Under the pieces are notes generated by a model. That model searched no databases and was not told the DNA's origin. It was given only the letters and a program-made list of their open reading frames with translations. 64,000 nt of DNA. Origin: an uncultured Lachnospiraceae bacterium. GTDB taxonomy: Bacteria > Bacillota > Clostridia > Lachnospirales > Lachnospiraceae. Every line of letters starts with the position of its first letter. Position 1 is the stretch's first letter. The position numbers and the translations under genes are program-made. Of the stretch, positions 24,829 to 25,147 are shown piece by piece. Location: positions 308,989 to 372,988 of the forward strand of contig CAMWFQ010000001.1 in NCBI GenBank assembly GCA_947173495.1, in the 5' to 3' direction.

Positions 24829-24987
24829 ACTTACTTTCCCTTTAAACTATCTGTTCTCCCCTCCCGTCACTACGCCCGATAATCCTGTATACAAAATCTA
24901 CATTTTGACTACAAATATACAAATATCCAGGTATTTTTTCCGGCAAAGAAAAATATTCACAAGCGTCAGATCCTATCAATTATTATT

Positions 24988-25048
24988 CAGGGCATGATAA
25001 ATCAGAGCCGGAGTAAATTTTCCTCTGGCTCTGACTTATCATGCCCTG
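24988..25048. terminator. Central hairpin of the invertible segment (26-bp stem with two mismatched/wobble positions)
   Basis: CAGGGCATGATAAATCAGAGCCGGAG...CTCTGGCTCTGACTTATCATGCCCTG. Confidence 0.75.
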
Positions 25049-25064
25049 ATTTCGGAAATAAATA

Positions 25065-25094
25065 TTGTCAGTGGTAAATTTAACGTGATATAAT
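25065..25094 (+). promoter_or_regulatory. Sigma-A promoter inside the invertible segment
   Basis: TTGTCA - 18 bp - TATAAT. Confidence 0.75.
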
Positions 25095-25147
25095 AAGAAA
25101 AATGGTTCAGATAATTACTTTCGCTGTAGTCAAAATGTAGAATCTGT

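What the first reader, a model, noticed from the sequence alone, without database searches (positions are those of the whole stretch)
24897..25141. Invertible promoter switch next to a tyrosine recombinase, controlling a BTAD activator and surface protein
Seen: perfect 17-bp inverted repeats TCTACATTTTGACTACA (24897-24913) and TGTAGTCAAAATGTAGA (25125-25141), 211 bp apart. The right repeat starts 6 bp past the stop codon of a tyrosine recombinase (25148-25993); the left lies about 70 bp upstream of a BTAD/SARP-type activator (start 24828). Between them is TTGTCA-N18-TATAAT on the plus strand (25065-25094), pointing away from the activator. No comparably good promoter faces the activator in this orientation. 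Known: many gut Firmicutes and Bacteroidetes flip promoters between short inverted repeats using neighbouring tyrosine recombinases. Inference: this is a phase-variable ON/OFF switch captured OFF; inversion would aim the promoter at the activator, whose output would include the downstream 1007-aa coiled-coil surface protein. An invertible switch acting on a BTAD regulator rather than directly on a surface gene is the unusual part.
Basis: partly seen in the sequence, partly recalled or inferred. Interest (0 to 1): 0.92.

Follow-up and report, generated by a model that had tools for sequence, protein, structure and literature searches.

The report
Flip-switch promoter for a SARP-type regulator
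A short DNA segment beside a recombinase gene in this gut bacterium (family probably Lachnospiraceae) is very probably flipped end to end to turn on a regulator gene, which in turn appears to activate a large surface-protein gene; the same cassette recurs in at least six related genomes.

Summary
The 17-bp repeats are the inner parts of two tyrosine-recombinase sites (arms ACnnAAT / ATTnnGT around a 4-bp centre, CTAC). They flank an outward promoter and a very stable hairpin (-47.8 kcal/mol). Across 83 homologous recombinase genes the arrangement recurs: repeats follow the 3' end in 51 of 68 testable cases (0 in shuffled DNA). In sites chosen by arm motif alone, the 4-bp centre matches between the two copies in 51 of 53 loci (2% between loci). 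One module (L079) carries the segment inverted relative to its relatives L076, L077, L078 and L080, with flanks in unchanged order. Inversion is thus shown for the family, not for this strain, which is assembled OFF. The target is a SARP-like regulator: winged helix, BTAD, degenerate GGDEF; best structural match AfsR. Switch-to-BTAD recurs at ten further loci in six other genomes, nearly always followed by a large surface protein. Upstream of that gene lies a conserved direct-repeat box, found once in this genome, so a relay (switch, activator, surface protein) is likely. Invertible promoters with tyrosine recombinases in Clostridia are known; the conserved SARP-relay cassette appears new.

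The parts
25148..25993 (-). Tyrosine recombinase (281 aa), presumed invertase of the segment
   Evidence: PF00589 E 1.5e-25, PF02899 E 7.9e-10; aligns end to end with the XerC-like recombinase 4a8e, R / HxLRH / LGH / Y motifs present; homologs carry inverted repeats at the same place
25125..25141 (.). Recombinase-proximal inverted repeat; crossover centre GTAG (CTAC on - strand) at 25137-25140
   Evidence: exact 17 bp; site alignment
24897..24913 (.). Regulator-proximal inverted repeat; crossover centre CTAC at 24898-24901
   Evidence: exact 17 bp; site alignment
25065..25094 (+). Promoter TTGTCA-N18-TATAAT inside the segment, pointing away from the regulator (OFF as assembled)
   Evidence: same promoter at the same distance from the repeat in relatives
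24987..25049 (.). Long hairpin inside the segment, probable bidirectional insulator/terminator
   Evidence: 31-nt arms 90% complementary; -47.8 kcal/mol, z -11.7; a strong hairpin in 40 of 53 related segments
23554..24816 (-). SARP-like regulator: winged helix, BTAD, degenerate GGDEF C-terminus (likely start ATG 24816; ORF opens at 24828)
   Evidence: PF03704 E 1.7e-9; NCBIfam weak hits AfsR 7-262 and diguanylate cyclases 355-399; Foldseek best hits AfsR 8k60 and EmbR, then GGDEF structures
23477..23511 (-). Putative activator box TGAGACAGTTTGCAGGATAGCCCCCTTGT plus -10 TAGAAT of the surface gene
   Evidence: same block is the best match in L075, L077, L078, L151 and the related block in L080; single match in own genome
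23443..23497 (-). Probable intrinsic terminator (CCCCCTTG...CAAGGGGGTTTTTT) between regulator and surface gene, overlapping the putative promoter
   Evidence: sequence; fold -24.4 kcal/mol, z -3.7
20323..23343 (-). Large coiled-coil protein with signal peptide and C-terminal membrane segment, presumed surface protein and target
   Evidence: ORF; weak NCBIfam hit TIGR04320 surface exclusion domain, below cut-off; signal peptide and membrane segment read from sequence

Best explanation
A site-specific inversion switch. The adjacent tyrosine recombinase binds two sites (ACnnAAT-nnnn-ATTnnGT type, centre CTAC) and inverts the roughly 240-bp segment between them. As assembled the promoter points at the recombinase 3' end and the hairpin blocks read-through, so the regulator is OFF. 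After inversion the promoter lies about 30 bp inside the regulator-side repeat and gives a leader of about 120 nt to the regulator's ATG (ON). The regulator, a SARP-like winged-helix/BTAD protein with a catalytically degenerate GGDEF domain, then activates the surface-protein gene from a direct-repeat box beside its -10. Shown by comparison: the site anatomy, conservation of the module, both orientations within the family, and recurrence of switch-BTAD-surface protein. Inferred: flipping in this strain, recombinase specificity for these sites, DNA binding of the box, and ON/OFF expression.
For: Repeats follow 51/68 homologous recombinases, 0/68 shuffled, 1/68 on the 5' side. In sites picked by arms alone, centre identical in 51/53 loci but only 2% between loci, as strand exchange demands. 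L079 segment aligns to L080, L078, L076 and L077 only as reverse complement (L080: 114 against 2; shuffled 2), with recombinase (87%) and downstream DNA (81%) collinear. Promoter at matching distance from a repeat, OFF in 42, ON in 9, unclear in 6. Contigs stop within 200 bp downstream of the recombinase in 13 cases, upstream in 2, of 83. Hairpin conserved. Switch-BTAD at L074, L075, L077-L080, L151, L152, L154 (fragment) and L155, although own genome has a single BTAD gene. Box conserved and unique. Fold match to AfsR.
Against: No reads, so no inverted molecules seen in this strain; no second genome of the species was available. Comparison partners are metagenome assemblies. The own recombinase-side outer arm is degenerate (arm score 8.6 against 10.6 for the other site). 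Box similarity is 20-24 of 30 against shuffle maxima 19-22, so each pair alone is weak; only the coincidence at one block is convincing. L076, with the same kind of switch, drives a sugar/polysaccharide-type operon, not a BTAD gene.
Confidence: 0.84

Rival explanations
1. A locked or decayed switch: the module is of the invertible kind but no longer flips in this strain, leaving the regulator constitutively OFF.
For: Degenerate outer arm at the recombinase-side site; related BTAD genes are decayed in G029, G030 and L077.
Against: Recombinase intact with catalytic motifs; centre and inner arms identical in both sites; regulator, box and surface gene all intact.
Confidence: 0.1
2. The switch's main output is a transcript towards the recombinase (antisense or autoregulation) and the regulator is expressed independently.
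For: The promoter points at the recombinase 3' end in most assemblies (42 of 57).
Against: That transcript would be antisense over the gene's end; genes downstream of the switch are variable surface, polysaccharide or regulator genes typical of phase variation; ON forms aim at them; no good promoter faces the regulator in the OFF form.
Confidence: 0.04
3. Integrase with attachment-site remnants of a mobile element, the repeats not being inversion sites.
For: Tyrosine integrase fold.
Against: Sites are inverted, not direct (0 of 53 match in direct orientation), enclose only about 190-350 bp in nearly all loci, and are found in opposite orientations; no phage or plasmid genes noted next to it.
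Confidence: 0.02

Closest known systems
Inverton group 139 with tyrosine invertase group 35 in Clostridia (PMC11892184, Microbiome 2025)
   Same: Clostridial promoter-sized inverted segments beside a tyrosine-type recombinase; members seen to flip in Clostridium sp. D5 and Intestinimonas butyriciproducens, a species whose strain An565 carries a homologous module here (L096).
   Different: Group motif and invertase sequences are in supplements that could not be read, so identity is not proven; the passages read do not mention BTAD or SARP targets.
C. difficile cmr switch (Cdi6) upstream of cmrRST (PMC6837544)
   Same: Invertible element upstream of transcription-regulator genes, giving indirect control of a surface phenotype.
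   Different: Target is two response regulators and a sensor kinase, not a SARP-like protein; the paper leaves open whether that element carries a promoter.
SARP/AfsR regulators of Streptomyces (PMC10972967; PDB 8k60)
   Same: DNA-binding domain plus BTAD; heptameric direct repeats overlapping the -35 region.
   Different: Here fused to a degenerate GGDEF domain, in a gut clostridium, and placed under an invertible promoter beside a surface-protein gene.
Bacteroides invertible promoters of polysaccharide loci
   Same: Promoter between inverted repeats flipped by a recombinase (recalled knowledge; PMC8748976 for invertible promoters in Bacteroidales).
   Different: There the promoter typically drives the surface operon directly.

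Membership tests
Tyrosine-recombinase invertible promoter (inverton) | Inverted repeats flanking a short segment | tested here: met
Tyrosine-recombinase invertible promoter (inverton) | Outward promoter inside the segment | tested here: met
   consensus match only, conserved in relatives
Tyrosine-recombinase invertible promoter (inverton) | Adjacent recombinase of the integrase family with catalytic motifs | tested here: met
Tyrosine-recombinase invertible promoter (inverton) | Both orientations occur | tested here: inconclusive
   met between homologous modules; not testable within this strain
Inverton group 139 / invertase group 35 | Group repeat motif and invertase cluster | not testable with these tools
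   supplement look-ups not available; main text read
Inverton group 139 / invertase group 35 | Clostridial tyrosine recombinase next to the inverton | tested here: met
SARP regulators | N-terminal OmpR-type winged helix followed by BTAD | tested here: met
   PF03704 over cut-off; Trans_reg_C below cut-off in most orthologs, above in L155; AfsR as best structural match, TM 0.62 by target
SARP regulators | Heptameric direct repeats overlapping -35 of the target | tested here: inconclusive
   clear GAAAGAG-N5-GAAAGAG in L074 and L080, imperfect in own; binding untested
Xer recombinases (XerC/XerD/XerA) | Score above the curated equivalog cut-off | tested here: not met
   best 140.7 against cut-off 220 (XerA); 122 against 329.6 (XerD)
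Tyrosine-type DNA invertase NF007370/NF007371 (FimB/FimE-like, name recalled) | Score above the curated cut-off | tested here: not met
   26.5 against 221

The most novel reading that the evidence does not exclude
A conserved two-input surface-adhesin relay: a flip-switch sets whether a SARP-like activator is made, and its degenerate GGDEF domain (accompanied by an intact GGDEF enzyme in the sister operons) makes the activator respond to a cyclic-dinucleotide or nucleotide signal, so that large surface proteins appear only in switched-ON cells in the right signalling state.
Probability: 0.25. Interest if true: 0.75.

Novelty: new variant of a known kind. Interest (0 to 1): 0.62.

Why it matters
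Phase variation is usually read as a promoter flipped in front of a surface gene. Here a family of clostridial flip-switches repeatedly targets a dedicated SARP-like activator paired with an adjacent giant surface protein, so one inversion is passed through a regulator that may add a second input. The 4-bp centre rule (same within a locus, free between loci) gives a simple way to find these sites in genomes without reads, and the predicted box gives a direct test of the relay.

Tried and rejected
Looked for more copies of the repeat in the genome: none. Looked for the other half of the broken switches in G005 and G021 by pattern: only the known half found. Looked for the regulator in the same genus: few and decayed or diverged, without switch; the recurrence came from other genomes. 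Looked for the box upstream of the coiled-coil genes of G029 and G021 and downstream of the G005 regulator: not found. Full-text searches combining BTAD with phase variation, and Lachnospiraceae with invertible promoters: no paper. L096 was checked as a link to the published I. butyriciproducens inverton: a homologous module is present, but lengths differ (about 305 bp here, 255 bp published), so not claimed identical. Mobile-element attachment sites rejected.

Full report
Observation. The repeats occur nowhere else in the genome with up to two mismatches. Gene order on the minus strand is recombinase (25993-25148), switch, BTAD regulator (from ATG 24816), terminator, surface protein (23343-20323).

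Is it an inversion module? I collected homologous recombinases from relatives and examined 83 distinct ones. Of 68 with at least 300 bp of downstream DNA, 51 have an inverted repeat of score 14 or more starting near the stop codon; shuffled DNA gives 0 and the 5' side 1. Aligning the sites shows two 7-bp arms, ACnnAAT and ATTnnGT, around four central bases. When sites are picked by arms only, ignoring the centre, the central four bases agree between the two copies in 51 of 53 loci, but only 2% of the time between different loci, and never in direct orientation. This is what a crossover region needing local identity should look like, and it is independent of which sequence is used. In the window the centre is CTAC; the exact repeat begins at the centre and runs inward, while the outer arms differ (AGATT and CAAAAT).

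Is the segment ever flipped? Five homologous modules (L076-L080) have alignable segments. L079 aligns to the other four only as a reverse complement (L080: 114 inverted, 2 direct, 2 shuffled), while the recombinase (87% DNA identity) and the DNA after the switch (81%) are collinear between L079 and L080. The promoter score agrees: L079 is ON and the others OFF. Over all scored modules promoters face the recombinase in 42, the downstream gene in 9, with 6 unclear. Contigs break within 200 bp downstream of the recombinase in 13 of 83 modules and within 200 bp upstream in 2. Two contigs of G013 stop at the inner edge of the repeat, as assemblies do when both orientations are present; this is suggestive only. 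I could not look at reads, so flipping in the window's own strain is inferred.

What does it switch? In this recombinase family the downstream genes vary: large secreted proteins, signal-peptidase operons, polysaccharide genes (naming partly from sequence reading). In the closest relatives the target is a BTAD regulator. L075 has recombinase, switch, a BTAD protein 66% identical to the window's, then a large signal-peptide protein. L077 and L078 have the same with an extra 150-aa protein first. L074, L079 and L080 have a GGDEF protein (PF00990, E 1e-29 to 1e-31 in L074 and L079) before a diverged BTAD protein, then a large surface-type protein. L151 and L152 have a second recombinase between switch and BTAD; L155 has another BTAD lineage and L154 a BTAD fragment. 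All four of these last loci have matching site centres by inspection. That is ten further loci in six other genomes, although the window's genome has just one BTAD gene.

The regulator. Eight homologs were aligned and modelled (mean pLDDT 73, a moderate model). Foldseek finds AfsR in its transcription complex (8k60, E 3e-9) and EmbR for the N-terminal two thirds and GGDEF structures for the C-terminus. Sequence agrees: weak AfsR and diguanylate-cyclase matches, and a Pfam GGDEF match in the L152 homolog, below cut-off. The RYGGDEF signature reads RYGNRHF in the window's protein, so cyclase activity is unlikely (inference from sequence).

From regulator to surface gene. Between them lies a terminator-like hairpin, so simple co-transcription is unlikely in this locus. 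Upstream of the surface gene the block TGAGACAGTTTGCAGGATAGCCCCCTTGT-TAGAAT is the best match to the corresponding intergenic DNA of L075, L077, L078 and L151, with a related block in L080. L074 and L080 show a clean heptamer repeat GAAAGAG-N5-GAAAGAG upstream of TATACT, as expected of SARP sites (heptameric direct repeats with 4-15 nt spacers over the -35; PMC10972967). A pattern built from the block matches once in the genome at up to three mismatches, at this place. Single pair scores are modest (20-24 of 30 against shuffle maxima 19-22), so the box is a prediction. In the window the terminator stem overlaps it: read-through RNA would contain the whole stem, RNA started at the surface-gene promoter would not.

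Known or new. Clostridial invertons next to tyrosine recombinases were reported with measured flipping (group 139; PMC11892184), and C. difficile puts regulators under an invertible element (PMC6837544). I found no paper in the held library joining BTAD regulators with phase variation. The switch is a new member of a known kind; the recurring switch-SARP-surface-protein cassette is a new variant. The recombinase is not an Xer or NF007370/NF007371 invertase by curated cut-offs.

Noticed in passing
L076:7153-12840: The same kind of switch precedes a 150-aa protein, an epimerase-like gene and further genes ending in a DUF3492 glycosyltransferase-like protein; looks like a Pel-type polysaccharide operon (name recalled, not tested).
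   Followed up: partly
L076:7153-7608; L077:7081-7575; L078:7130-7582; L079:7231-7635; L080:7181-7636; L154; L155:2817-3242: A family of about 130-160 aa proteins, the first gene after the switch at seven loci; the two members scanned (L076, L079) match no Pfam family and L079 no NCBIfam family.
   Followed up: partly
whole set: Promoters face the recombinase (OFF) in 42 of 57 scored modules, ON in 9: assembled genomes are strongly biased to OFF.
   Followed up: no
window 23443-23511: Terminator stem and putative surface-gene promoter overlap so that only read-through RNA can fold the terminator.
   Followed up: partly
L097:1199-1522 and L148:6461-6790: PilZ-like gene directly before a coiled-coil surface gene in G029 and G021 (PilZ weak, E 0.0014, in L097; L148 judged by sequence similarity).
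   Followed up: partly
L097:7612-8848; L098:604-1848; L077:7605-8853: BTAD regulator homologs split by frameshift or carrying stops.
   Followed up: no
G066 (L049, L108-L115): One genome with at least nine recombinase copies, several at contig ends, some in tandem with a second recombinase and polysaccharide genes.
   Followed up: no
window 26150-29497: Two GDSL-hydrolase genes and an MBOAT acyltransferase upstream of the recombinase: a possible cell-surface acylation cluster.
   Followed up: no
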